A DNA stretch of 39,124 nucleotides from Cyanobium sp. PLM2.Bin73 (lineage in GTDB: Bacteria; Cyanobacteriota; Cyanobacteriia; PCC-6307; Cyanobiaceae), in NCBI GenBank assembly GCA_007694915.1, contig REEV01000060.1, positions 1 through 39,124 of the forward strand, written 5' to 3'. A program made the translations under genes and the position numbers. The notes beneath the pieces are model-generated. The model was not told the DNA's origin. It worked only from the letters and a program-made list of their open reading frames with translations, and searched no databases. Below are positions 6,135 through 19,902 of this stretch, one piece after another. Numbering within the stretch: position 1 is the stretch's first letter; the number at the start of each line of letters is the position of its first letter.

Positions 6135-7640
6135 ATGACCTGCCCGCTCCACTCCCTTCTCCACCAGGTGGGTCTGGAGGCCCCGGCCGAGCTGGCCGGG
6201 GCCGAGGTGCAGCGGTTGAGCTGTGATTCCCGCCGCGCCGGCCCCGGCACCGTGTTCATCGGCCTGCCCGGCACCCAGGTGGATGGGGGCCGCTTCTGGC
6301 GCCAGGCCCTGGCCGACGGGGCCGTCGCTGCGGTGATCAGCCCGGCAGCGGCCGCCGCGGAGCCGCCGGCGGCCCACGACCCGGTGCTGGTGGTGAGCGA
6401 ACCGGTGGCCCGCTGGGCCGGCCTGCTGGCCGCCGCCTTCTGGGGGCTACCCAGCCGGCGCCTCAGCCTGATCGGGGTGACCGGCACCAACGGCAAAACC
6501 ACCACCACCCATCTGATCGAGCACCTGGCGGCGGCCAGTGGCCAGCCAGCGGCGCTGTTCGGCACGCTGGTGAACCGCTGGCCCGGCCACAGCGTCACCG
6601 CCCAGCACACCACCGCCTTCGCCGACCTGCTGCAGATGCAGCTGGCCCAGGCGGCCGACAGTGGCGCCCGGCTGGCGGCCATGGAGGTGAGCTCCCACGC
6701 CCTCGACCAGCAGCGGGTGGCGGGCTGCCGCTTCGCCGGCGCGGCCTTCACCAACCTCACCCAGGACCACCTCGACTACCACCCGTCGATGGAGGCCTAC
6801 TTCGAAGCCAAGGCCCTGCTGTTCGCCGAGCCCCTGCTCAGTACTGACGGCCGCCCCCGGGCGGTGGTGAACAGCGACGACAGCTGGGGGGCGCGGCTGG
6901 CCGAGCGGCTGGGTCCCGCCTGCTGGCGCAGTTCGCTGCAGGATCCCGGCGCCGAGCTGTTCATCGATGAGCTGGTAATGGAGAGCCAGGGGGTGAGCGG
7001 CCGCCTGCGCACTCCCCTGGGCGAGGGGCGCTTCCACTCGCCCCTGGTGGGCCGCTTCAACCTCATGAATCTGCTTCAGGCGGTGGGGGTGCTGCAGCAG
7101 CAGGAGCTGCCTCTTGAGGGCCTGCTCGAGGGCCTGGCCAGCTTCCGGGGGGTGCCTGGTCGGATGGAGCGGGTGCAAGCGGGCAGCGGTGAGGGGCAGC
7201 CGGCTGTGCTGGTGGATTACGCCCACACCCCCGACGGTCTGGAGAACGCCCTGCAGGCCTGCCGGCCGTTCACCCGCGGGCGGCTGATCTGCGTGTTCGG
7301 CTGCGGCGGCGACCGCGACCGCAGCAAGCGACCGCAGATGGGCGGCATCGCCGCCCGCCTCGCCGACCGGGTGGTGGTGACCTCCGACAATCCCCGCACC
7401 GAAGACCCCAGCCGGATCCTCGATGACGTGGTGGCCGGTATCCCTGCTGACACCGACCTGCAGGTGGAGGGCGACCGGGCCGCCTCGATCGCCACCGCGA
7501 TCGCCAGCGCCGGGCCCGACGACCTGGTGCTGATCGCCGGCAAGGGCCATGAAGACTACCAGATCCTCGGCACCACCAAGATCCACTTCGACGATCGCGA
7601 GCAGGCGGAAAAGGCCCTGCGACAGCGGCGATCCGCTTGA
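6135..7640 (+). CDS. murE: UDP-MurNAc-L-Ala-D-Glu:meso-DAP ligase
   Basis: This enzyme adds the third residue, meso-diaminopimelate, to the peptidoglycan stem peptide in the cytoplasm, using ATP. It has 501 residues with the three Mur ligase domains: an N-terminal UDP-binding domain, a central ATPase domain with P-loop [12 protein letters not shown] (about 114-125), and a C-terminal domain. The tetrad DNPR at about residues 418-421 (DNPRTEDP) is the signature for meso-DAP rather than lysine. The late AGKGHEDYQ motif also fits. The start is an ATG 26 bp after the glutaredoxin-like gene. A 13-bp tandem duplication spans its stop codon. Confidence 0.97.
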
Positions 7641-7658
7641 TCTACCCGCTTGATCTAC
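7633..7658. repeat. 13-bp exact tandem duplication over the murE stop
   Basis: The unit ccgcttgatctac occurs at 7633-7645 and again directly at 7646-7658. The first copy contains the murE TGA. Because 13 is not a multiple of three, the second copy is out of frame and does not extend the protein. An inverted repeat (cagggccc 7658-7665 with gggccctg 7683-7690) follows between the convergent genes and may help termination, though it lacks a T-run. Confidence 0.85.
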
Positions 7659-7691
7659 AGGGCCCTGAAGGAATTGGCCGCTGGGCCCTGC

Positions 7692-8456
7692 TCAGGGCTT
7701 GCGGACTGAGACGAACGAGCTGCTCTGGCGCAGGTTCAGATCGCTCTCCCGCACCCAGCCGCCACCGTCAACCTCCAGCCAGCCGTTGGCGCTCCGTCCG
7801 GTGAGGGAGACCATCTGGCCATTGCTCACCCGGCGGCGCACCAGAGAGTGCTGGTCGGCCAGTTCGTGGATTTCGGCCTGGCCATTCTGACCCTTGGCTG
7901 CAGCGATGAACGACTCCGCCGAGCGGCTGCCGATCGGTGGCCCATCAGCCCGGTACTGGAAGTCATCTGCATCACGGCCCCGCAGGACAGCCCAGCTCAG
8001 GCCGGCCAGGCCGATAGGCAGCAACAGCCACCAGCCCCGGCCCCGGTTGACGGCCTGAGCTGAATCTGCAGCGGTAGCCCTCGAGCGGGAGAAGTCCTGG
8101 CCGAAGTCGGTGCGCTCCGCACCCTGCTTCAGCTGGTCGGCCACTGCACCCAATTGACCCACCACGCCGCTTCTCGCGCTGAAGGGGCAGGTGAGCCGGG
8201 CCTGGTTGACACCGTCCTTGGTGAGGTCGAGGACGATTTCAACACGATCGGAGTCGATGGCCCGGCGGGAGACCACACTGGCTTGGTCGGTGAGCCAGCC
8301 CTGGCTGGCTGCTTGTTCGAGGCAGGCGGTTTCAGCCGTTTGGAGCATTTCAGCCGGGGTGCTGGCCCGTGCGCTGCCGCATGCGGCGACCAGCACGACG
8401 CCGGTGGCTGCGGTGAGCAACTGCCGGCGCAGTACCTGAGAGGTGACCGGGTTCAT
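7692..8456 (-). CDS. Probable lipoprotein with C-terminal SH3-like domain
   Basis: A 254-residue envelope protein of unknown function. The N-terminus is a signal peptide with a lipobox ending LVAAC (Cys26), so it is probably lipid-anchored. The middle part contains a cysteine pair region (about 45 and 90), then a hydrophobic segment GWWLLLPIGLAGLSWAVL near residue 145, which looks like a membrane helix. The C-terminal 70 residues (HSLVRRRVSNGQMVSLTGR, then GWLEVDGGGWVRESDL) resemble a bacterial SH3 domain, often a wall-binding module. It is convergent with murE. A lipid anchor plus a later transmembrane helix is unusual, so the topology is uncertain. Confidence 0.75.
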   Translation of the reverse strand: MNPVTSQVLRRQLLTAATGVVLVAACGSARASTPAEMLQTAETACLEQAASQGWLTDQASVVSRRAIDSDRVEIVLDLTKDGVNQARLTCPFSARSGVVGQLGAVADQLKQGAERTDFGQDFSRSRATAADSAQAVNRGRGWWLLLPIGLAGLSWAVLRGRDADDFQYRADGPPIGSRSAESFIAAAKGQNGQAEIHELADQHSLVRRRVSNGQMVSLTGRSANGWLEVDGGGWVRESDLNLRQSSSFVSVRKP

Positions 8457-8839
8457 GATCAGGGGGGAGGGAATAGGCGTGGGTTACGAGAATTGAATCC
8501 TTCAGCAGCCTGAGGGCTCATGCAGGTTCTCCTCATCAGGACCGGCCGCTGTGCCGCGACGGCCCACCCACGGCTTCACCGTATTCCTGTCTGTACGAAT
8601 GGCAACACAATTGCGGGATCGGCCGCCGCCACTGTCCGGCAGGGGCCTTACCGCCCAGATCCGTTGGCCGAGAAGCGATCTGCTTGCCAAAACCTGCTGC
8701 TTCCGGGGCTGACCCTGCAGGCCAAGGCGCCGAAAATCCCACGCATTTTGCACAGTTCTGCGTTTGTTGTGTTAATGAGGCCTGACAGGGTCCCGCTCGG
8801 CCCCACCCGTTGGCTGGCAAACTTGCTACGTCATCGCAT
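8457..8839. other. Gene-free stretch between divergent genes
   Basis: These 383 bp separate the SH3 lipoprotein (minus) from aqpZ copy A (plus). They must carry promoters for both. A TTGCAC element occurs about 85 bp before the aqpZ ATG (ttttgcacagtt) and matches the -35-like element of copy B, but no good -10 follows at normal spacing. No RNA gene, repeat or convincing protein is seen. Confidence 0.5.
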
Positions 8840-9583
8840 ATGCCCATGGCATCCACTCCCTCGCTATCAAAAAAGTTTCTGGCTGAGTTGTTCGGCACCT
8901 TCTGGCTTGTGCTCGGTGGTTGCGGCAGTGCTGTTCTGGCCGCCGCCTTCCCCTACAACGAGGCTGCGGCAAATCCCTTCGGCCTCGGGTTCCTTGGGGT
9001 TTCGCTCGCTTTCGGTCTCACCCTGCTCACCATGGCCTATGCCATCGGCCATATTTCCGGGTGTCACATCAACCCGGCGGTGAGCTTCGGCCTCTGGGCA
9101 AGCGGCCGGTTCCCAGGCTCCCAGCTGCTCTCCTACGTGGTGGCCCAAGTGCTCGGCGCCATCATTGCCGGTGGGTTCATCTACCTGGTGGCCAGCGGCC
9201 GCGAAGGTTTTGCCCTCACAGGCAGCAACCCCCTGGCAACCAATGGTTTTCTCGCCCACTCCCCCGGTGGCTACGGCTTCTTCTCAGCCCTGGCGATCGA
9301 AATCGTGCTCACCTTCTTTTTCCTGATTGTGATCCTTGGGGCCACTGATCGCCTGGCCCCTGGCGGGTTCGCCGGCGTGCCCATCGGTCTGGCGCTCACC
9401 CTGATCCACCTGATCAGCATTCCTGTCACGAACACCTCAGTGAACCCGGCCCGCAGCACCGGGGTGGCCGTGTGGGTGGGTGGCGACTCCATGGCGCAGC
9501 TGTGGCTGTTCTGGGTGGCGCCGATCGTCGGCGCCCTGATCGCCGGCTGGGTGTACACCAACCTGCTCAGCGACAAGGCCTGA
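8840..9583 (+). CDS. aqpZ: Aquaporin Z, copy A
   Basis: A six-helix water channel of the inner membrane. Both pore signatures are present: NPA at residues 78-80 ([10 protein letters not shown]) and 202-204 ([10 protein letters not shown]). The selectivity-filter residues expected for AqpZ are all seen (Phe59, His190, Thr199, Arg205), so it should pass water rather than glycerol. ATG 8840 gives 247 residues; ATG 8846 is an alternative, and an upstream TTG at 8810 is less likely by comparison with copy B. It is the first gene of module A. Its last part (9368-9567) is identical base for base to copy B while its first half differs clearly, which suggests gene conversion. Confidence 0.96.
9368..9567 (+). 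repeat. 200-bp tract identical to 12426-12625
   Basis: Within the 3' part of aqpZ copy A, all 200 bases match copy B, whereas the first roughly 500 bp of the two genes differ at many synonymous and some replacement sites. Identity ends abruptly a few codons before the stop. The pattern fits recent gene conversion between the two paralogues. Confidence 0.9.
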
Positions 9584-9587
9584 TCGC

Positions 9588-9625
9588 TGCCAAGCCACGC
9601 AGCCTCCAGGCTGCGTGGCTTGGCA
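9588..9625. other. Perfect 17-bp hairpin after aqpZ copy A
   Basis: Arms 9588-9604 and 9609-9625 are exact reverse complements with a 4-base loop (tcca). It starts four bases after the aqpZ stop and has no T-run, so it is not a classical terminator; it may protect the mRNA 3' end. The real terminator follows 40 bp later. Confidence 0.8.
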
Positions 9626-9667
9626 ACCGTCACGGCAGGATGAACCGCACGACTCGCCGACATCCTC

Positions 9668-9694
9668 AAAGAGGGGCATTAGCCCCTCTTTTTT
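9668..9694 (+). terminator. Rho-independent terminator of aqpZ copy A
   Basis: A stem aaagaggggc / gcccctcttt with a 4-nt loop (atta) ends in a run of six or more T. It lies 85 bp after the aqpZ stop and before the convergent lyase gene. Confidence 0.88.
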
Positions 9695-9727
9695 GTTGCC
9701 CACCATCATCGGTTGCCCGGAGGTTCA

Positions 9728-10954
9728 TCAGGGTTGAGTGGTCAGCTCTGCCAGGGTCGCCGTCAGCTGATCCAGCTCGGCGTTGGTGGTGGTGATGTGG
9801 GTGCAGGCACGCAGGCAGTGGGGATCATCGAGGCTGCGCAGCCAGATGCCTCGTGCCCCCAGGGCCTGCACCAGCGCCTCCGGGGTGGGCCCATCCACCG
9901 TGAAGCTCACCAGCCCCGCCGGCGGCGGCACCTGCAGCAGGGGCTCCACCCCCGGCAGCTCCTGGAGCTGCCCCCACAGCCGGCCGGCCAGGGCACCGAT
10001 CCGCTTCAGCCGTTGGCGGGCATCGCCCTCGGCCTCCAGCAGCTGCAGGGAGCGGTGCAGCCCCGCGAACAGGGGCAGACAGGAGGTGGCCACCTCGAAG
10101 CGGCGGCCATCGGCGTGGAAGCCGCTCTGGGCTGAGCCCTCGTGGCCGAGGCTGCGCCAGCCGATCAGTGTGGGCTGGGCCTGGCTGAGCAGCCGCTGGG
10201 ACAGCGCCACCACCCCCAGCCCCTCAGGGCCACAGCACCACTTGTGGCCGGTGCAGGCATAGATGTCGGCCGCCGCGGCCGCCTCCGCCACGGGGATCGA
10301 GCCGAGACACTGGGCCGCATCCACCAGCAGCCAGGGCTGGCCTGGATGGCGTTGCAGCCGCTGGGCCACCTTGGCGATGGGCATCAGCTGGCCGGTGTTC
10401 CAGAGCAGGTGGGAGAGCACCACCAGCCGGGTGCGCGGCTGCAGGGCTCCCTCCAGGCGCTCCAGCAGCGCGGCCTCGGTGGCCTCGGGCCCCGTCGCCA
10501 GATCGCGCACCACCAGGGTGTGCAGCTCCAGCCGGTGGCGGCGGGCCAGTTCCCGGCAGGCCGCCACCACGCCGGGATGTTCACAGTCGCTGAGCAGCAG
10601 CTGATCCCCTTCCCGCCAGGGCAGCCCCCAGAGGGGCAGCACGCAGCCGCTGGTCACGTTCTCGGTGAAGGCCAGCCGGGCGGGGCTCACCCCCATCCAG
10701 CCGGCCAGGCGCTGGCGCAGGGCCCCCATGGTGTGCTCCACCAGCGGCCACACCTCAGAGGTGAACGGACCCAGCTCCTGGATCTGTCGCCAACAGGCGG
10801 TGATCGCCTCCAGGCTCGGGCTGGGCAGTGGCCCCTGACCGCCGTAGTTGAAATAGGTCTTGTTGGCCAGGGCGGGCATGGCCGCTCGCAGGGCCTCGCC
10901 GATCTCCCCTCCAGGGGACTGATTACGCTGCCCGCTGCCGGGCTGGGTGCTCAT
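9728..10954 (-). CDS. PLP-dependent cysteine/cystine C-S lyase (class V aminotransferase fold)
   Basis: A 408-residue fold-type I PLP enzyme. The N-terminal block NKTYFNYGGQGPLPSPSLEAI matches cyanobacterial L-cysteine/cystine C-S lyases (C-DES), which release persulfide sulfur for iron-sulfur assembly. The PLP Schiff-base lysine is Lys238 in TGHKWCCGPEGLG, and the cofactor aspartate lies in LLVDAAQCLG. The likely start is ATG 10954 (MSTQPGSG); an upstream in-frame Met at 10978 and a longer frame exist. The ATG overlaps the ATG of the divergent metzincin (catg), so no separate promoter space exists between the two coding regions. A shrunken second copy lies at 12728-13122. The enzyme could instead be a different class V member; C-DES is the best match from memory. 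Confidence 0.85.
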   Translation of the reverse strand: MSTQPGSGQRNQSPGGEIGEALRAAMPALANKTYFNYGGQGPLPSPSLEAITACWRQIQELGPFTSEVWPLVEHTMGALRQRLAGWMGVSPARLAFTENVTSGCVLPLWGLPWREGDQLLLSDCEHPGVVAACRELARRHRLELHTLVVRDLATGPEATEAALLERLEGALQPRTRLVVLSHLLWNTGQLMPIAKVAQRLQRHPGQPWLLVDAAQCLGSIPVAEAAAAADIYACTGHKWCCGPEGLGVVALSQRLLSQAQPTLIGWRSLGHEGSAQSGFHADGRRFEVATSCLPLFAGLHRSLQLLEAEGDARQRLKRIGALAGRLWGQLQELPGVEPLLQVPPPAGLVSFTVDGPTPEALVQALGARGIWLRSLDDPHCLRACTHITTTNAELDQLTATLAELTTQP

Positions 10955-11495
10955 GGCGCTGTCGGTGGAGGCCATCATCGATCGCCGCTGGGCTCGCAGT
11001 CTGCGCCGCTTTGCCGGCGGCACCAAGGTGCGCTACTGGATCAATGGTCGATCCCGCCGACTCGGCGATGACACCAAGGCCGAGGCGATCTCGAGCCGAG
11101 AGGCCCGCTTCATTCGATCCACCTTCGCCGAGGTGGATCGGCTGACCGGATTGCGCTTCGTGGAGAAAGGCAGCCCCGCCCGCATGGAGATCGATCTCTA
11201 TCGCGTTGGCATTTTCGGCGAGCGGGGCTGCTCGGTCAGGCCACCCGCAACCCCGGTTGGTTTGAGATCGCGTGGGAGAACCGGGGCGGCAACCGGCTCA
11301 CCCGCTCGGAGCGCATCAACAATCACCCATGAGATCGGCCATACCCAGGGCCTCAACCATCCCAACGGCAAGCCCTTTCCACCCCGCTACGACACCGGCG
11401 ACACGGTGATGTCCTACAACCGGATTTCCGGTGGTGGCGTGGGGTTCACGTCAACCGACATCGCCGCCCAGCAATCGCTCTGGGGCGTGGGCTGA
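10953..11495 (+). CDS. Small metzincin-type zinc metalloprotease with an out-of-frame middle segment
   Basis: A 180-residue protease. The zinc site HEIGHTQGLNH (bases 11328-11360) fits HExxHxxGxxH of metzincins, and a Met-turn-like VMSYN follows about 18 residues later, as in matrixins and serralysins. The N-terminal half (FAGGTKVRYWIN, FAEVDRLTGLRF) has the look of the catalytic domain start. No signal peptide is seen. Between about 11227 and 11321 the annotated frame reads an unconvincing sequence, while the neighbouring frame reads GQATRNPGWFEIAWENRGGN, a plausible protease segment. A one-base loss in the GGGG run at 11224-11227 and a one-base gain near 11318-11324 (aacaatc) would explain this. 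The frame therefore remains open, but about 31 residues are replaced. Activity is doubtful unless these are sequencing errors. Confidence 0.7.
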   Translation: MALSVEAIIDRRWARSLRRFAGGTKVRYWINGRSRRLGDDTKAEAISSREARFIRSTFAEVDRLTGLRFVEKGSPARMEIDLYRVGIFGERGCSVRPPATPVGLRSRGRTGAATGSPARSASTITHEIGHTQGLNHPNGKPFPPRYDTGDTVMSYNRISGGGVGFTSTDIAAQQSLWGVG

Positions 11496-11510
11496 GCCCG
11501 GGAGCCTGAT

Positions 11511-11844
11511 TCAGATGCTGCCGAAGGCCACCTGACAGGCGGCGTTGATCAGCTCAGCTTCGGCCAGGCTGGTGGGCACCTCACCATCCAGCAGCCCGTC
11601 GGCGCAGTCGGCTTCCAGCCGGTAGGAGTTGCCGTTGTTGTTCTCCACGAACGAGATGGCGGTGTCGTCGATGGGCTGCACCGAGCCGTAGCACAGCTGC
11701 ATGCCGCTGTTGGGCACCACCACCGTGGGCTGGCGCTCGCGGAGGGCGCTGTTCGCGGCGCTGTTGTCGATCAGAGCCGTGGTGAGAGAGTTGCGGGGCC
11801 ACCAGGGCGGGGATACCGGGTTTTCGGGAGTGTATGTTTGACAA
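11511..11844 (-). pseudogene. 3' remnant of the Lys-rich secreted protein gene, module A
   Basis: The last 75 or so codons (ending AACQVAFGSI) match the gene at 14807-15864 almost base for base, and a shorter stretch upstream (WWPRNSLTTALIDNS) aligns to its WWGGQALGWGVNALSTSLIVNS with codons missing. The signal peptide, lysine-rich part and KG repeats are absent: the sequence runs straight into the promoter region of aqpZ copy B at about 11845. Here the frame across the RQPTVVVPNS region is intact, unlike copy B. No start codon with sense is seen, so this is a relic. Confidence 0.8.
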
Positions 11845-11851
11845 CCCAGCA

Positions 11852-11879
11852 TTGCACGACGGCAGGGCTGGGGTAAATT
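11852..11879 (+). promoter_or_regulatory. Putative sigma-70 promoter of aqpZ copy B
   Basis: TTGCAC at 11852-11857 and TAAATT at 11874-11879 are separated by 16 bp, placing a start site about 20 bp before the ATG. The hexamers match consensus only in part. A matching TTGCAC precedes aqpZ copy A. Confidence 0.4.
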
Positions 11880-11903
11880 CCGCCCGCTGTATCCGTTGAT
11901 GCC

Positions 11904-12641
11904 ATGGCTCAACCGGTCCCTATGCCCAAAAAATTCCTCGCCGAGCTCTTCGGTACCTTCTGGCTCGTGCTGGGTGGATGTGGCAGTGCCGTTCTGGCCG
12001 CCAATTTCCCCTACGACAACGCCACCGCCAACCCCCTGGGGCTCGGCTTTCTCGGCGTTTCCCTCGCCTTCGGTCTCACCCTGCTCACGATGGTGTACGC
12101 CATCGGGCATATCTCCGGCTGCCACATCAACCCGGCGGTGAGCTTCGGGCTCTGGGCCGGTGGCCGCTTCAAGGGTGGTGAACTCCTGCCCTACATCGTG
12201 GCTCAAGTGATCGGCGCCGTGATCGCCGGCGGTGTGATCAAGCTGGTGGCCAGTGGCCGTCCAGGCTTCGTGATTGAGGGGGCCAACGCCCTGGCCACCA
12301 ATGGTTTCGGGGCCAATTCCCCCGGTGGCTATGGCTTCTGGTCAGCTCTGGTGATCGAGGTGGTGCTCACCTTCTTCTTTCTGCTGGTGATCCTCGGTGC
12401 CACCGACAAGCTCGCCCCCGGCGGCTTCGCCGGCGTGCCCATCGGTCTGGCGCTCACCCTGATCCACCTGATCAGCATTCCTGTCACGAACACCTCAGTG
12501 AACCCGGCCCGCAGCACCGGGGTGGCCGTGTGGGTGGGTGGCGACTCCATGGCGCAGCTGTGGCTGTTCTGGGTGGCGCCGATCGTCGGCGCCCTGATCG
12601 CCGGCTGGGTGTACACCAACCTGCTGAGCGACGAGGCCTGA
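11904..12641 (+). CDS. aqpZ: Aquaporin Z, copy B
   Basis: A 245-residue water channel, paralogue of the gene at 8840. It keeps both NPA boxes ([10 protein letters not shown] and [10 protein letters not shown]) and the Phe/His/Thr/Arg selectivity set, so it should also conduct water. The start ATG opens [17 protein letters not shown]; the alternative at the second Met would lose only six residues. Differences from copy A cluster in the first two thirds, in the loops ([11 protein letters not shown] against [11 protein letters not shown]). It has its own probable promoter and a terminator with a UUCG loop, so the two copies can be regulated apart. Confidence 0.96.
12426..12625 (+). repeat. 200-bp tract identical to 9368-9567
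   Basis: This is the module B partner of the identical aqpZ tract. It begins in codons for [10 protein letters not shown] and stops at NLL near the C-terminus, where the copies diverge again (SDEA here, SDKA in copy A). Confidence 0.9.
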
Positions 12642-12700
12642 TTGCTGCCAACCCGGCACACCCCCAGGCCATCGAGGGGCCGACACCCCTCGTTATTCAT

Positions 12701-12725
12701 GGAGGGGCTTCGGCCCCTCTTTTTT
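12701..12725 (+). terminator. Rho-independent terminator of aqpZ copy B
   Basis: Stem gaggggc (12702-12708) / gcccctc (12713-12719) with the extra-stable loop ttcg, followed by six T (12720-12725). A second hairpin, cgagggg / cccctcg at 12673-12692, lies just before it. Confidence 0.9.
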
Positions 12726-12727
12726 CA

Positions 12728-13122
12728 TGGGTCAGGGTTGGGGGGATCAGCTCCGCCAGGGCGCTGGCCAGTTGATCCAGTTCGCCGGCTGTGGTGGTGA
12801 TGTGGGTGCAGGCCCTGGGCCGCATCCGCCAGCAGCCAGGGCTGGTTGGCGTGGCGCTGCAGCTCCTGGGCCACCCGGGCGATGGGCATCAGCTGGCCGG
12901 TGTTCCAGAGCAGGCGCGAGAGCACCACCAGGGAGCGCAGCTCCAGCTGGTGGCGCCGGACAGCCGGGCCAGCTCCTGGATCTGCCGCAAGCAGTCTGTG
13001 ATCGCCTCCAGGCTGGGGCTGGGCAGGCGATCCCGGCCGCCGTAGGTGAAGTAAGTCTTGTTGGCCAGGGCCGGCATCAGCGATCGCAAGGGTGATGGCT
13101 TGGTGCTGTGTGTGCTGCTCAT
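12728..13122 (-). pseudogene. Shrunken cysteine lyase copy, module B
   Basis: This is a remnant of the gene at 9728-10954. The start (MSSTHST) and the block NKTYFTYGGRDRLPSPSLEAI are kept, then sequence is missing at three places: after IQEL, within the LVVLSHLLWN approach, and from the aspartate motif DAAQ to the C-terminal ACTHITTT. The PLP lysine motif is among the lost parts, so no enzyme can be made. One gap removes exactly 90 bp between two copies of caccaccag in the intact gene (10418-10426 and 10508-10516). The original stop is also lost by a one-base gain. Confidence 0.88.
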
Positions 13123-13201
13123 GGCCTTGCCCGTTGAGGTCATCATCGATCCCAGCTCAGCGCGCCGTGGCTCCTTCCTGCACGTCTTGCCGTCGGTTTA
13201 A
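13121..13201 (+). pseudogene. 5' relic of the metzincin gene, module B
   Basis: Starting at an ATG that again overlaps the lyase start, it reads MALPVEVIIDPSSARR, matching MALSVEAIIDRRWARS of the intact metzincin at 10953, and then stops at a TAA after 26 codons. Only the first ten or so codons are homologous; the catalytic domain is absent. Low-GC DNA begins right after it. Confidence 0.7.
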
Positions 13202-13290
13202 CAACCCGTCCAATTGCTTCTTAGGGAGCTCCATGGGCGGGATTTCCATATGCCAGAATCGAATGGTGTCCGGCTGCACAATTTCCTACC

Positions 13291-13296
13291 TATAAT
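13291..13296 (+). promoter_or_regulatory. Possible -10 element for the trypsin-like gene
   Basis: A perfect TATAAT lies 122 bp before the GTG start, in the low-GC island. No good -35 hexamer is present at 16-18 bp, so this could be chance in AT-richer DNA. Confidence 0.3.
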
Positions 13297-13417
13297 CACC
13301 GCTTTGGAAGGGGATGCCAACGGCCGCATTGGCGGACGAAGACCTGATTACAAATCTAAAAACTTCTCTCCTGTCACCATTGAACGGATAAGCTGAATGC
13401 CTGCATAGGGGCTTTCA

Positions 13418-14665
13418 GTGGGCACAAGAGTAAATCCACGCAATCTTAATCCTTCCAACGTAAAACCTGGGGACTTCCCCGCCGTCGCGCTCATCACAGC
13501 AACAGGACGAGGCGGCAATGGGTTGACTGGGAGTGGATTCGCAATCGGCAGACGATGGCTGCTGACCGCATCACACGTGGTTTACAATAAGGCTGTGCTG
13601 GGCGGCCTGGCAAGAAATCTCGCCGTCTACCCATCGTACAATCCTAACAGAAAAAAGAATAATGTTACCTTTGCCGATAAACTATATTATTTCTCTCAGG
13701 TGGATCCAGATGGAGATGGTTTCATTGCATCTGGCGATGGAAAGAAGCGTACGCTTTCCGGAGCCGAGATTGACATAGCGCTAATTCGCACTAAACGACC
13801 AATACTAAACTCCGGAGAATCTGGCTTTGAGTTGAAGTCGCCATTTCAAGGAAAATCCAGGGCTGGTGTCCTTGGATATGGATATGAAGCGACAAGACAT
13901 GGCCCACGGCTAATTGGGAGCACAGGGCGAGCCATTAAGTCGTCAGTTGACAACACGGTCTTCTATAAGAATCTCAATATCAAATCTGGAATGTCTGGCG
14001 GGCCAGTTTTTACGCGGGACGGAGTTGTTTCTCCCGTTTCAACAGCTTCTTTTGGTGCCAGCCTAGATGCGCATATTCCTTGGATCGAAAAAGCAATCAA
14101 AGGCGGTGGACGCAGGAGGGGCCGCTCGATAGATTCCCAAACTCGTTCGGAATCCTTTCAAGATACGGATCAAGGCCAGAAGGGCGATGACAGAATAACA
14201 CTCAATGCACGAAACCAGAGGGTAAATATCGGCAATCTTGCTAGACGCCGATCACTTGCAGACCTGAAAGCTTTTCGTTCGCGCGATGATATTGTAGACC
14301 AGCTCACTGGATTGCCACTAATTCAGCGCAGCCTACCTGATGACACTGGATTTGCGGGGCGAGGGGAGTTTCCAAGGATTCAGTATACGATTAACCAGTT
14401 CGAAAGCGACAACATCACCTTGCTATCCGCCAAGCGTAAGCATGTTTCGAGACTTGTAGGTGATATGGGTGTATTTCAGAATGAGGGTGTCCATATATTT
14501 GCCAAGCAGCAGCTTTCCGGTGTCACGAATGGAAAAGCGCTAATCATTATCTCGGATGCCACTCCAGGCTACCAGCGATCCGCCGACCGTGTGTTTCTTC
14601 ACAGGGGTCGATTATCCTTGGGTTTAGAGATGCTTTCTCCAGATTCGATCTCCTCTCTTGTCTAA
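13418..14665 (+). CDS. Trypsin-like serine protease with unknown C-terminal domain
   Basis: A 415-residue protein. The first 220 residues are a chymotrypsin-fold peptidase with all three catalytic residues in order: His53 (LLTASHVV), Asp119 (AEIDIALI) and Ser193 (SGMSGGPVF). An inserted loop DPDGDGFIASGD (96-107) has the DxDxDG pattern of an EF-hand-like calcium site. A basic linker (GGGRRRGRS, about 230) leads to a C-terminal domain of about 170 residues that I do not recognise; its end (KALIIISDATPGYQ, then FLHRGRLSLGLEMLS) recalls C-terminal tail domains of cyanobacterial surface proteins. No N-terminal signal peptide is seen, so export, if any, would depend on the C-terminus. The GTG start is the first in frame after two stops; an alternative is not evident. 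The gene sits on a low-GC island between relics of a duplicated module and was probably acquired by transfer. Confidence 0.85.
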   Translation: MGTRVNPRNLNPSNVKPGDFPAVALITATGRGGNGLTGSGFAIGRRWLLTASHVVYNKAVLGGLARNLAVYPSYNPNRKKNNVTFADKLYYFSQVDPDGDGFIASGDGKKRTLSGAEIDIALIRTKRPILNSGESGFELKSPFQGKSRAGVLGYGYEATRHGPRLIGSTGRAIKSSVDNTVFYKNLNIKSGMSGGPVFTRDGVVSPVSTASFGASLDAHIPWIEKAIKGGGRRRGRSIDSQTRSESFQDTDQGQKGDDRITLNARNQRVNIGNLARRRSLADLKAFRSRDDIVDQLTGLPLIQRSLPDDTGFAGRGEFPRIQYTINQFESDNITLLSAKRKHVSRLVGDMGVFQNEGVHIFAKQQLSGVTNGKALIIISDATPGYQRSADRVFLHRGRLSLGLEMLSPDSISSLV

Positions 14666-14727
14666 ATTTTAGCAAAGCCTCTTTTCGAAGCCTCTGAGTT
14701 CATGGTTGTTGATGGCTTGCCTGGTTA

Positions 14728-14790
14728 ATTACGCAGGCCGTCTTGCCCATAGCGTTGTCGGTTGAGGCCATCGTCGGTCGCTACTGCTTC
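14728..14790 (+). pseudogene. Third relic of the lyase/metzincin start junction
   Basis: The sequence around 14752-14776 (gcgttgtcggttgaggccat) closely matches the metzincin start region at 10956, and the bases before it (attacgcaggccg) match the lyase codons at 10922. The ATG has become ATA. It runs directly into the end of the secreted-protein gene copy, with nothing of the protease body left. Confidence 0.6.
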
Positions 14791-14806
14791 GGCAGCTGGC
14801 CCCAGC

Positions 14807-15864
14807 TCAGATGCTGCCGAAGGCCACCTGACAGGCGGCGTTGATCAGCTCCGCTTCGGCCAGGCTGGTGGGCACTTCACCATCCAGCAGCCCGTCGGCG
14901 CAGTCGGCTTCCAGCCGGTAGGAGTTGCCGTTGTTGTTCACCACGAACGAGATGTCGGTGTCGTCGATGGGCTCCACCGAGCCGTAGTACAGCTGCATGC
15001 TGCTGTTCGGCACCACCACCGTGGGTTGGCCGATCACGGATGGCGTTGTTCACGGCGCTGTTGACGATCAGGGACGTGCTGAGGGCATTGACTCCCCAGC
15101 CCAGGGCCTGGCCGCCCCACCAGCTCCAGGAGGGGCTGTTGTTGTAGCTGTACCAGTTGTTGTTGCCCCAGGGGCGGTTGGGTCCCCAGTTGGTGTTCCG
15201 AGCCCAGGAGGGATTGCTGTAGTAGCCGCGGTTGTAGCCCACCGGTGCGACCCAGATGTTGCGACGGCTCTTGTTGTAACGACGCCTGTCGTCATTGTTC
15301 CAGGCTTTCCATTGTTTGCGCTGCGCCTCGCGATAACCCTTGTCCTTCCCTTTCTTCTTGCCCTGGGTGAAGCCTTTGTCGTAGCCGGCTTCACGACCCT
15401 TCTCGTAGCCCTTTTCCCTGCCTTTTTCCTTGCCTTTTTTCAGCCCATCCTGGCGGCCTTCTTCGTAGATTTTTTCGCGCTGCTTATCACTGACTTTCTT
15501 TTTGTCCGACTTCTGGTCGGCAGCTTTCTTCGTCTTTTCGGAGGGCTTTGCCTTGGGTGCTGCCGCCGCTGCCCTTGGTTTTTGTGGGCTCAGCTTTCTT
15601 TTGTATTTCCTTTTGGTGCTGTTGGTTCTGCTGCTGTTTGTGCTTGTTCTGCTGGTCTTGTTTCTTCTTTTTCTTGTTCTTCTCGTCCTTGTCGTCCTTG
15701 TCTTTCTCGGCGATCAGCAGCCCATGGGTGGCCCTGAGCTCAGGGGGCTGGGCTCGGCCCGCCAGGGGGGCTGCGGCCAGGGCCGGCACCCCGCTGGTGG
15801 TGGCCATCAGCAAAGAGAGGCCAAGGGCCTGGGCGGAGCGCAGGCCGCGGCGTGGCGACGGCAT
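14807..15864 (-). pseudogene. Frameshifted gene for a secreted, lysine-rich KG-repeat protein
   Basis: Read on the minus strand, this begins with a signal peptide (LGLSLLMATTSGVPALAAAP) from ATG 15864. A highly charged tract follows (KDKDDKDEKNKKKKK, then Gln/His-rich), next a repeat region of KG(x)EKG(x)EKGY type (KKGKEKGREKGYEKGREAGY), then an Asn/Trp/Tyr/Gly-rich part (NPSWARNTNWGPNRPWGNNN), and a C-terminal domain ending AACQVAFGSI. Two one-base gains break it: one in the AAAAA run around 15574-15578, and one near 15023-15027, where the module A copy reads RQPTVVV in frame. If repaired it would be about 350 residues. It is not a family I can name. Cell-surface location follows from the signal peptide; function is unknown. 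Confidence 0.75.
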
Positions 15865-15881
15865 CGGCGATGGGCTGGTGC

Positions 15882-16082
15882 TCAGAGCAGCTGGCCGGCC
15901 ATCACGGCCGCCACAGCCGAAAAGACGGTGATGCCAAGGGCCGTGAGCGGGTTCTGGCCCTGGGCCACGGCCACGCTGGTGACCACACCGGCGCCGAGGC
16001 AGGCCACCGCCAGTTGGTTGAAGAGCTCGCTGCGGTCGCGGGGGCTGGGGCTTGGGGTCACGGCGGGGCCGGCGATTGCCAA
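15882..16082 (-). CDS. Small two-helix membrane protein
   Basis: A 66-residue protein with a short polar start (TPSPSPRDRSELFNQ) and two hydrophobic segments (LAVACLGAGVVTSVAVA and ALGITVFSAVAAVMAGQLL) joined by a short GQNPL turn. The start is a TTG. It follows ycf46 on the same strand after 48 bp and could share its transcript. No family is recognised, but the regular two-helix design and lack of frame breaks suggest a real gene. Confidence 0.6.
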   Translation of the reverse strand: MAIAGPAVTPSPSPRDRSELFNQLAVACLGAGVVTSVAVAQGQNPLTALGITVFSAVAAVMAGQLL

Positions 16083-16130
16083 GACCGTAGAAGCGCCAAT
16101 GGGTCCGGCCCAGGGCAGGGCTGAGCCTTG

Positions 16131-17632
<1,502 letters not shown>

Positions 17633-17636
<4 letters not shown>

Positions 17637-18226
17637 GGGTGCTGGGGCTCGTCCGGGGGCGCCTCGGCCTGGGGCGGCCGCAGGGCCGCCAGGGCCGACC
17701 AGCGCGGATCACCGGCCGGGGCCCCGTGCCCCCAGCTGGCCGGTCCGGGGCAGTCGGCCCCGCAGCGGTTGACCAGGGGCAGCCGCAGGCTGAGCTGCTC
17801 GAAGGTCCAGTGCCCGGGATCGAAGCTGCCGGCCGGATCGATGCCCTCGCCCAGGTCCTCGGGCAGCTTGTCCCCGGCAAGGGCCAGCACCGCCTCGCCC
17901 TCGTTGTCGAGGCCGGCCTGGCCGCCGGCGCTGGCGGGCTCGCCCAGCCACAGCACCTCCCGGGTGCGGAAGCCCAGGGGGTGGTTGTACTGCTGCAGGC
18001 AGCGGTCGCAGCAGAGGGTCACGATCGTGTCCGCTTCCCCCTCCAGCTCCAGCACGCTTCCGCGGTGTACCGCCCGCACCCGCCCGATCACCGGCGTCAG
18101 GCTGCTGAGGCCGCTGAGGTGCTGATCCACGGTCCAGGAGCGACCCTCGGCCAGGGGGCGCAGCTCCTGGATCGGCACCGGCCGCAGCGCCTCGCCACTG
18201 GTGGAGCCCTCGGGGCCGGGGATCAT
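17633..18226 (-). CDS. YceD/DUF177-family protein
   Basis: A 197-residue protein with the family's cysteine pattern: CCDRC at the end of a strand (VTLCCDRCLQQYNHPL) and CGADC near residue 165, probably a metal site. Members of DUF177 are linked to 23S rRNA accumulation in bacteria and plastids; the exact role is not established. The start ATG 18226 lies 4 bp from the yidC stop, and the stop overlaps ycf46 by 4 bp. Tight coupling between yidC and ycf46 suggests a shared function in ribosome and membrane protein biogenesis. Confidence 0.85.
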
Positions 18227-18230
18227 GGTC

Positions 18231-19379
18231 CTACTTGCGGCTCTTGGGTTCGAACGGCAGCCGGCCCGAGGAGGAGCCGCCGGCAGCGGCTCCGGCCGTG
18301 ACGGTGACCGCCTGCTGGGCCAGTTGCTGGTCGAGGATCTTCTGCAGGTTGTCCGGCAGCGCTTCGCGGGTGAGCAGGAAGGTCTGCAGGGCCTGGAAGA
18401 TGTTGGCCACCACCATGTAGAGCAGCACGCCGGCCGGCAGCGGGAAGAACAGGAACATGGCCGTGATCATCACCGGGGTGATCTTGTTGGCCGTGGCCTG
18501 CTGGGGGTTGGGCGGCATGCCCCTCCCCGAGAGGATCTGGGAGAGAAACAGGGTGGCCCCGAACCCGGCCACCAGGATGGCGATGTCCCAGTTGACGCCG
18601 CCGTCACCCATGAAGCCCACCTGGCCCAGGGCCTGGATGAACAGGAAACCGGTGCGGGCGGCCAGGCCGGGGATCCTGGCCTCCACCGTGGCGTCACCCG
18701 GGGCCAGGGCGGTGATCGTGCCGTCGGCGTCCACGCTCACCACCTCCTCGCCCTTGGTCACCGCCCAGTCGGGCCGGAAGCGGCTGCCGTTGTCCGCGTC
18801 GGCCAACAGGGCGCTGAAGCTGTCCCCGTCCTTGGTGTGCAGGCGCACCGTCTGGCGGTCGCCCACGCCCAGCTTGGTGCCGCTCTCCAGGGTGCCGATC
18901 ACCGGCACGTGGTTGCTGGAGGAGAGGAAGATCGAGTGGCTGGCGGTGTTGAAGGGCTTGGCCTCCACCGTGGCGATCTGGTCGGCCGGCAGCACCTTGA
19001 GGTTGAAGGTGTAGGGCACGTCGGCGAACGGTGAGCCCCGCAGGGTGGCGAACAGAGCGAACAGGATCGGCATCTGCACCAGCAGGGGCAGGCAGCCCGC
19101 CAGCGGACTGCCGAACTCCTTCATCAGCTTGCCCAGCTCCTCCTGCTGCTTCTGGGGGTTGTTGGCATGCTTGCTGCGGATCTCGGCCTGGCGCTGCTGC
19201 ATCACCGGCTGGGCGATGCGCATGCGGCGGGCGTTGCGGATCGAGCCGGCGCTCAGGGGGAACAGGGCCAGGCGGATCACCACCGTGAGGGAGATGATCG
19301 CCAGGCCGTAGCTGGGCACCAATCCGTAGAAGAAATCGAGGATCGGAATCAGCAGGTTGTCGGAGATGTAGCCGATCAC
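18231..19379 (-). CDS. yidC: Membrane protein insertase YidC/Alb3 with an Ig-like insert
   Basis: A 382-residue insertase for inner and thylakoid membrane proteins. The groove arginine is present in the first core helix ([10 protein letters not shown], Arg36), followed by the cytoplasmic hairpin (about 47-92), the segment [16 protein letters not shown], and late helices [16 protein letters not shown] and [20 protein letters not shown]. Between helix two and helix three an exported loop of about 120 residues (about 120-243) contains [20 protein letters not shown], a pattern typical of bacterial Ig-like (BIG2) domains. The N-terminal P1 domain of E. coli YidC is absent. It lies in the classic rpmH-rnpA-yidC order. 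Confidence 0.96.
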
Positions 19380-19464
19380 GGCGTGGGGAGCTGGGGGGCA
19401 GGGGGTCAGCGTGGCTCAGTGTGCCTGAGCGCTGTGGGGGGTGCGGGGTGCGGAAGCCCCGGCC

Positions 19465-19902
19465 TCAGGCGGCCATGCCCCTGGGACGGGCCGGGGCGGC
19501 GCTGGCGGCACGGCGCTCCTCGATGTAGGCCTCCAGCTCGCGGAAGCGGGGCACCGAACGCATCTCGAGCTTGGCGCCGTCGTTGAGCACCAGCACCATG
19601 TCGCCCCAGGCGCCGAAGCCGCGGGGCACGCTGCGTACCTCCCGGATCTGGCTGTACACCACCTGGCTGCGGTCGCGGCCCATCCAGCCACCGTTGACCT
19701 CAATGCGGCGGCTGGTGATGCGGAAGCGCAGCCACAGCGCCCGCACGATCGCCCCAACGGCGAAGGGAATGCCGATCACGGTGAGTCCGAACAGGAGGTT
19801 GATCAGCAGATCGCCGCGGGCCGGCCCGCCCACGTAGAACTCCGTTTCCTGCACTGCGCTCTGGACCGTTGGCCGGCTGTCGCCGCTGCTCGGCTGGTTC
19901 AT
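19465..19902 (-). CDS. PH-domain membrane protein
   Basis: A 145-residue protein with an N-terminal hydrophobic pair (LLINLLFGLTVIGIPFAVGAI) followed by a bacterial PH-like domain (LWLRFRITSRRIEVNGGWMG, QVVYSQIREVRSVPRGFGAW, DMVLVLNDGAKLEM). The layout resembles the small PH-domain proteins found next to yidC in cyanobacteria. The ATG overlaps the rnpA stop by 4 bp, and yidC follows after an 85-bp gap. Its role is unknown; the position suggests a link to membrane biogenesis. Confidence 0.85.
   Translation of the reverse strand: MNQPSSGDSRPTVQSAVQETEFYVGGPARGDLLINLLFGLTVIGIPFAVGAIVRALWLRFRITSRRIEVNGGWMGRDRSQVVYSQIREVRSVPRGFGAWGDMVLVLNDGAKLEMRSVPRFRELEAYIEERRAASAAPARPRGMAA

What the first reader, a model, noticed from the sequence alone, without database searches (positions are those of the whole stretch)
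13200..14726. Low-GC island with a trypsin-like protease of novel architecture
The protease has an intact His53-Asp119-Ser193 triad, a calcium-type DxDxDG loop inserted in the catalytic domain, a basic linker and an unrecognised 170-residue C-terminal domain, but no signal peptide. Composition and codon use differ sharply from every neighbour. The C-terminal end may be an export or surface-attachment tail.
Basis: partly seen in the sequence, partly recalled or inferred. Interest (0 to 1): 0.58.

Follow-up and report, generated by a model that had tools for sequence, protein, structure and literature searches.

The report
Strain-specific trypsin with an export-like tail
A cyanobacterium carries a recently arrived gene for a trypsin-like enzyme whose relatives carry tails typical of one-step secretion, so it is probably exported too, although its own tail is an unrecognised, unusually basic one.

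Summary
Window 13418-14665 (+) encodes a 415-residue trypsin-like protein with His53, Asp119 and Ser193, a DPDGDG loop, a GGGRRRGR linker and a tail without any Pfam or NCBIfam match. GC is 49% against 70% for the window. The low-GC DNA (about 13169-14743) is absent from ten syntenic congener loci, including one about 95% identical alongside. It lies in a duplication-scarred locus, between two relics of an aminotransferase gene's 5' end.

The 'novel architecture' is only partly new. Of 22 relatives (Azospirillum and other proteobacteria, picocyanobacteria), 21 share a 12-residue EF-hand-type loop, so the loop belongs to the family. None has an obvious signal peptide. Recognisable tails are of the type I secretion kind (RTX, DUF4214, bluetail). 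The nearest same-family tail passes the bluetail cut-off; the window's own tail resembles it only weakly.

Best reading: a horizontally acquired, calcium-stabilised trypsin, probably exported by type I secretion. Against it: no RTX, a basic tail (pI 10.3), Asn at an S1-pocket position where 22 of 22 relatives have Glu, and a very long branch. Export is inferred, not shown.

The parts
13169..14743 (.). low-GC foreign segment (bounds set by native relics on both sides)
   Evidence: composition; no match in ten syntenic congener loci; flanking relics
13418..14665 (+). trypsin-like protease gene, 415 aa, GTG start; AGGGG at 13407-13411 could be a ribosome-binding site (by eye)
13475..14101 (+). 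chymotrypsin-fold protease domain, residues 20-228
   Evidence: Pfam; AlphaFold2 pLDDT mostly 70-89, lower in the loop region; Foldseek hits to V8 protease and chymase at E about 1e-9
13574..13576 (+). catalytic His53
   Evidence: invariant in alignments A3, A4 and A6
13703..13738 (+). EF-hand-type 12-residue loop DPDGDGFIASGD, residues 96-107
   Evidence: loop present in 22 of 23 members including this one
13772..13774 (+). catalytic Asp119
   Evidence: invariant
13994..13996 (+). catalytic Ser193, in GMSGGP
   Evidence: invariant
14099..14128 (+). basic linker KGGGRRRGRS, residues 228-237
14129..14662 (+). orphan C-terminal region, residues 238-415; proposed export tail
   Evidence: no family; own genome only; weak matches in 386 phylum genomes judged chance; no confident fold
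14537..14602 (+). ALIIISDATPGYQRSADRVFLH, residues 374-395, bluetail-like stretch aligned with TLLIVNDGNEGFDMSTDSIIQL of the G281 relative
   Evidence: weak
12732..13168 (-). remnants of a second copy of the class V aminotransferase gene, left of the island
14744..14781 (.). second relic of the aminotransferase 5' end, right of the island (84% to window 10948-10985; the left relic at 13116-13168 matches 10948-11000 at 77%)
8870..9596 (+). aquaporin copy 1 (81-82% to the G012 and G004 orthologues, 86% to G007)
11928..12654 (+). aquaporin copy 2 (91-92% to the G012 and G004 orthologues)

Best explanation
The gene is a horizontally acquired, strain-specific member of a small, scattered family of trypsin-fold proteases that begin directly with the catalytic domain and carry an EF-hand-type loop between the catalytic His and Asp. 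Most likely the protein leaves the cell in one step through a type I secretion channel (an ABC transporter and HlyD pair of the host with its TolC-type outer-membrane protein), recognised by its C-terminal region, and folds into an active protease only outside, where calcium fills the loop. Shown: family membership of the protease domain, conserved loop, intact triad, absence of an obvious signal peptide, foreign composition, absence from close relatives, candidate type I secretion genes in the genome. Inferred: export route, role of the tail, calcium dependence, catalytic activity and any extracellular substrate.
For: Homologues of the protease domain: 6 plasmid records at 29-40% identity and 15 loci of one genome-contig scan. 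In cyanobacteria, 7 of 400 genomes of the same family match at E below 1e-50, own genome included. Tails of the 22 relatives compared: 9 Azospirillum/Roseomonas proteins share one RTX-type tail (read; of the two run through Pfam one matched PF00353 at its cut-off of 23 bits and one below it; the Sp7 plasmid copy scored 23.9); Roseibium, Methylobacterium, one Desulfohalobiaceae and one picocyanobacterium have DUF4214 above cut-off, the last with RTX as well; three other picocyanobacterial proteins end in the same kind of sequence by eye and a fourth is cut by its contig end; G281 has bluetail 25.7 bits against cut-off 21. Three (L006, L019, L020) have no tail, and RTX-type genes lie beside L006 (two annotated calcium-binding proteins) and L020. 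L018 has a tail that matched no family. Triad, fold and loop. Own genome: ABC-HlyD pairs on C12 and C88 and one protein with two OEP domains. The window tail scores 12.1 bits against a 110-residue bluetail-tail profile: 0 of 5000 shuffles and 1 of 767 real ORF ends score as high, the one being a Methylobacterium protein that itself ends in a bluetail-like sequence.
Against: The tail matches neither RTX nor bluetail by curated models, and the own genome has no other RTX or bluetail protein, so there is no known co-substrate. With other profile lengths the tail resemblance is weaker: at 90, 130 and 150 residues 3, 9 and 23 of 767 controls and 8, 1 and 2 of 5000 shuffles reach it; with a 75-residue core profile 3 of 707 controls and 4 of 3000 shuffles; with the Azospirillum tail profile 16 of 5000 shuffles and 1 of 320 controls. 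The profiles were chosen after I saw the resemblance. Tail pI is 10.3 and whole-protein pI 10.3, whereas 21 of 22 relatives are acidic (4.1-4.5); only G281 is not, pI 7.7. The position six before the catalytic Ser is Asn, whereas 22 of 22 relatives have Glu. The terminal branch is 2.0 changes per column. HlyD hits in the own genome lie below the curated cut-off. AlphaFold2 gives no structure for the tail.
Confidence: 0.5

Rival explanations
1. A decaying acquisition: the protease domain came from an RTX-type ancestor, the repeats have eroded to an unstructured basic tail, and the gene is no longer selected.
For: Very long branch and deviating amino-acid make-up; loss of the conserved Glu before the Ser; no RTX; tail not foldable; the neighbouring duplicated aminotransferase copy is itself a wreck; no congener has the gene.
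Against: 415 codons stay open, triad and the metal-ligand positions of the loop pattern are intact, and codon positions differ in GC (0.557, 0.470, 0.453).
Confidence: 0.25
2. An intracellular trypsin-like protease, for instance a stand-alone defence or housekeeping enzyme whose basic tail binds nucleic acid or membranes.
For: No signal peptide and a basic tail; weak PADLOC hits over the trypsin part only (RT-Protease_XI 25.1 bits).
Against: PADLOC hits cover only the common trypsin domain; no partner gene lies inside the island; relatives with identifiable C-terminal parts have secretion-type ones.
Confidence: 0.13
3. Secreted and then held on the cell surface: the basic linker and tail bind the acidic outer surface.
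For: pI 10.3; the only other basic-tailed relative carries a bluetail domain, which NCBIfam calls a putative surface protein domain.
Against: No known anchoring motif; not testable here. It is a variant of the best explanation rather than its opposite.
Confidence: 0.12

Closest known systems
RTX-tailed trypsin-like proteases of Azospirillum (e.g. strain Sp7 plasmid ABSP7_p1, locus L003)
   Same: protease domain 38-39% identical, triad, EF-hand-type loop, no obvious signal peptide, similar length (431 or 412 aa depending on the start codon, against 415)
   Different: acidic (pI 4.4-4.5 in the rows), RTX-type tail, Glu six before the Ser
Picocyanobacterial trypsins with DUF4214-type endings (G642, G508, G706, G520; G630 runs off its contig)
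   Same: same protease domain, start at the domain, loop present in 4 of 5
   Different: tails of about 510-850 residues in the four complete ones, with cadherin-like or RTX parts; acidic
G281 trypsin with bluetail domain (locus L061/L101, same taxonomic family)
   Same: size 395 aa, loop (one position changed), basic tail, C-terminal end aligns in register with the window tail
   Different: passes NCBIfam bluetail (25.7 against cut-off 21), the window protein does not; 31% identical over the protease domain
Glutamyl endopeptidases (V8 protease, Esp)
   Same: chymotrypsin fold; among the best solved structures
   Different: as recalled, V8 and Esp are Sec-exported zymogens; about 18-19% identity; no tail of this kind

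Membership tests
S1 chymotrypsin/trypsin-fold serine peptidases | profile match above curated cut-off | tested here: met
   Trypsin_2 36.3 (27.6), Trypsin 34.2 (20.6)
S1 chymotrypsin/trypsin-fold serine peptidases | His-Asp-Ser triad in order | tested here: met
   H53, D119, S193 invariant in the alignments
S1 chymotrypsin/trypsin-fold serine peptidases | double beta-barrel fold | tested here: met
   AF2 model plus Foldseek
S1 chymotrypsin/trypsin-fold serine peptidases | proteolytic activity | not testable with these tools
   needs an assay
EF-loop trypsin family described here | 12-residue EF-hand-type loop before the catalytic Asp | tested here: met
   22 of 23 members including this one
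EF-loop trypsin family described here | Glu six residues before the catalytic Ser | tested here: not met
   Asn here, Glu in 22 of 22 others; a conserved trait that I noticed, not a published criterion
RTX proteins | glycine/aspartate nonapeptide repeats | tested here: not met
   no PF00353 in the protein or in the own genome
RTX proteins | no N-terminal Sec signal | tested here: met
   (hydropathy only)
RTX proteins | acidic protein (recalled trait) | tested here: not met
   pI 10.3
bluetail-domain proteins (NF041519) | profile match above cut-off | tested here: not met
   not listed at E up to 10 or, tail alone, up to 1; own profiles give weak scores
type I secretion substrates | exporter genes in the genome | tested here: inconclusive
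   ABC-HlyD pairs on C12 and C88 and an OEP protein exist; HlyD below the curated cut-off
type I secretion substrates | export depends on the C-terminus | not testable with these tools
   needs an experiment

The most novel reading that the evidence does not exclude
The family is a class of zymogen-free, calcium-licensed trypsins: the chain passes unfolded through a type I channel, and an EF-hand loop next to the catalytic Asp locks the active site only in calcium-rich surroundings, which would replace the propeptide as the safety catch. The window protein would then carry a repeat-free, basic export tail of a kind not yet described.
Probability: 0.2. Interest if true: 0.6.

Novelty: new variant of a known kind. 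Interest (0 to 1): 0.36.

Why it matters
It joins an orphan protein to a recognisable but scattered family with interchangeable secretion-type tails, and offers a test case for two questions: what the minimal type I export signal is when RTX repeats are absent, and how a protease made without a propeptide is kept harmless inside the cell. It also shows a recent gene gain in a picocyanobacterium-like genome together with the recombination scar.

Tried and rejected
Tail as a known domain: no hit in Pfam or NCBIfam; PHROGs and PADLOC hit only the protease part; the PDB sequence search gave only chance-level matches for the tail (RSV fusion glycoprotein, E 0.07 at best). Phage or plasmid cargo: no relative in viral contigs in two scans, one weak hit (E 0.8) in phage records, and only Azospirillum replicons among plasmids. 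Weak tail matches in 386 phylum genomes turned out, as far as their sequences could be read by eye, to be helicases, a kinase, a recombinase, a restriction-modification protein and other unrelated proteins. Five weaker profile hits of genus g6 (E 4e-15 to 2e-22) were set aside: their trypsin domain follows a long N-terminal part and my loop pattern did not match, although two contain a similar DGDGFI stretch by eye. G211 (L062), trypsin plus RTX, lacks the loop and was used as outgroup. Structure search with the tail alone was not run because its model has pLDDT 32. The promoter and terminator scan of the island gave nothing above chance on the gene's strand.

My own errors, corrected: one search read the wrong frame for five loci (mended); read minus-strand matches on the wrong strand (mended); the loop list is wrong (mended). 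Rows dropped: bluetail loci L036, L039 and L044, and L056 too, because no full tail could be read; from the controls the bluetail loci and the loci that hold the window gene or the G281 gene were left out, and one search used only part of the loci (L062-L089 and L102 onwards, plus the window).

Literature: searches. 'Bluetail domain' and 'DUF4214' with 'cyanobacteri' gave no paper; 'DUF4214' with 'type I secretion' gave one, on type VI secretion in Serratia, seen in the listing only. I noticed no paper on this family in the listings; that is no proof of absence from print. Passages only were seen of PMC3034196, PMC11594277, PMC4949707 and PMC4390845.

Full report
What is there. Window 13418-14665 (+) is an open frame of 415 codons beginning with GTG. 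It matches Pfam Trypsin_2 and Trypsin above their cut-offs, has H53, D119 and S193, and its first 230 residues fold in AlphaFold2 to a chymotrypsin fold, with V8 protease, Esp and chymases among the nearest solved structures. Residues 238-415 match no family and get no confident model (pLDDT below 50 throughout). Composition differs strongly from the window: CDS GC 0.492 and GC3 0.452 against window GC 0.70.

Foreign and recent. The protein was found in 1 of 99 genomes (own plus 98 relatives), and none of the 12 congeners had a profile match. Of 12 congeners with the neighbouring AAA gene I fetched ten syntenic loci (G008 and G003 were left out because their matches were partial or on short contigs). 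None contains DNA similar to 13169-14743, not even G012, which is 95% identical over window 14807-19511. The locus is a scar: the window has two aquaporin genes (8870-9596 and 11928-12654, 83% identical) where each of the ten loci gives one; copy 2 is 91-92% identical to G012 and G004 and copy 1 only 81-82%, but 86% to G007. A complete aminotransferase gene (9728-11026) is followed by a wrecked second copy (pieces at 12732-13168), and the same 38-53 bases of its 5' end appear on both sides of the low-GC stretch, at 13116-13168 and 14744-14781. My inference: recombination with DNA of another strain made a tandem duplication, and the low-GC segment came in with it or was trapped in the redundant copy.

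Family. tblastn found six Azospirillum plasmid records; a scan of genome contigs with a four-row profile gave 15 loci from Azospirillum, Roseomonas, Roseibium, Methylobacterium and Desulfohalobiaceae. Profiles then found one further strong member in 386 phylum genomes (G281; 106 of the 386 had some match at E up to 0.001, nearly all weak and partial) and seven strong ones (E below 1e-50, own included; 12 at E up to 1e-6) in 400 genomes of the same family: own, G281 and five of one genus. I compared 23 proteins: the window's, 15, one plasmid copy (L006), and six cyanobacterial ones. The other plasmid copies (L002-L005) were not in this count because they are close to the Azospirillum rows.

Shared traits. 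A D-x-[DN]-x-[DN] loop of 12 residues, ending in D, E or N, precedes the catalytic Asp in 22 of 23 (all but G630). That it is an EF-hand-type calcium loop is my reading of the pattern; binding was not tested. All 23 start within about 20 residues of the first strand, without a hydrophobic leader. The position six before the catalytic Ser, which I recall as the bottom of the S1 pocket, is Glu in 22 of 22 relatives and Asn in the window protein.

Tails. RTX-type in the nine Azospirillum/Roseomonas rows (sequence read; PF00353 at its 23-bit cut-off in one of two tested); Ig plus DUF4214 in Roseibium, DUF4214 in Methylobacterium and one Desulfohalobiaceae protein; RTX plus DUF4214 in G642 and the same kind of ending by eye in three more of that genus, the fifth being cut by its contig end; bluetail in G281. 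L018 has an unassigned tail, and L006, L019 and L020 have none. RTX-type genes lie near L006, L017 and L020 and, less closely, L019 and L021. That DUF4214 and bluetail mark type I secretion is recalled or taken from NCBIfam's wording ('putative surface protein'), not tested here; for RTX it is stated in PMC3034196 (passages).

The window's own tail. MAFFT puts ALIIISDATPGYQRSADRVF opposite TLLIVNDGNEGFDMSTDSII of G281. Tests: profile of 26 bluetail ends, 110 residues: 12.1 bits, 0 of 5000 shuffles, 1 of 767 ORF ends as high; 90, 130 and 150 residues: 3, 9 and 23 of 767 and 8, 1 and 2 of 5000. Several of the higher controls are themselves RTX or family proteins (L006, L062, L008 and others), but not all were identified. 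With 75-residue cores: 3 of 707 and 4 of 3000. A first run with 27 rows gave 13.4 bits and 0 of 2000 shuffles. An Azospirillum-tail profile: 1 of 320 (the RTX protein L062) and 16 of 5000. So there is a faint, repeated resemblance to type I tails, chosen after the fact and below every curated threshold. I treat it as suggestive only. The tail is basic (pI 10.3), unlike all relatives except G281, whose last 120 residues have pI 9.7.

Export machinery. Own genome: a 980-residue ABC transporter with a cyclic-nucleotide-binding domain next to a 387-residue HlyD-type protein (contig C12), a C39-peptidase ABC next to a 413-residue HlyD-type protein (C88), and one protein with two OEP domains (C4). 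HlyD scores are below the NCBIfam cut-off, as in the congeners searched (over the cut-off in 3 of 13 genomes, none of the genus). In Synechocystis the ABC protein Sll1180, the HlyD-type Sll1181 and the TolC-type Slr1270 form a type I channel for S-layer protein (PMC11594277, passage). Marine Synechococcus exoproteomes contain protease-like and haemolysin-like proteins (PMC4949707, passages). No RTX or bluetail protein was found elsewhere in the own genome, so the protein would be an unusual lone client.

Tree. With 24 rows the window protein falls inside a supported group (100/97) of Azospirillum, Roseomonas, Roseibium and picocyanobacterial proteins, and nearer the alphaproteobacterial side with weak support (86/79); its branch is 2.0 and its composition deviates, so the exact place is unsure. 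Donor unknown: Azospirillum genomes are GC-rich (recalled), the segment is not.

Verdict. Ordinary in fold and partly ordinary in architecture; unusual in its orphan basic tail, its changed pocket residue and its recent arrival.

Noticed in passing
window 7622-15083: Tandem merodiploid scar: two diverged aquaporin alleles, an intact and a wrecked aminotransferase copy, and a 276-base duplicate (11511-11786 and 14807-15083, 93%) of the end of the next gene; each of ten syntenic congener loci shows one aquaporin.
   Followed up: partly
window 14807-15864 (-): The gene right of the island appears as several short overlapping minus-strand frames (14807-15037, 14877-15242, 15068-15394, 15487-15864), as if frameshifted by mutation or sequencing error.
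   Followed up: no
window 13214-13396 (+): A 60-residue open stretch in the same frame as the protease lies just upstream, separated by a TGA and a TAG; probably chance, since relatives start at the protease domain.
   Followed up: no
L107-L111 (five genomes of genus g6): A second group of trypsin-like proteins with a long N-terminal part and, in two, a DGDGFI stretch before the catalytic Asp; relation to the family unclear.
   Followed up: no
L006, L020 (Azospirillum): Tail-less family trypsins with small RTX-type proteins on both sides, as if protease and repeats were encoded separately.
   Followed up: partly
L124 2945-7050, L125 190-3587: Two ABC-HlyD pairs of the own genome, one ABC with a cyclic-nucleotide-binding domain, the other with a C39 peptidase domain.
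   Followed up: partly
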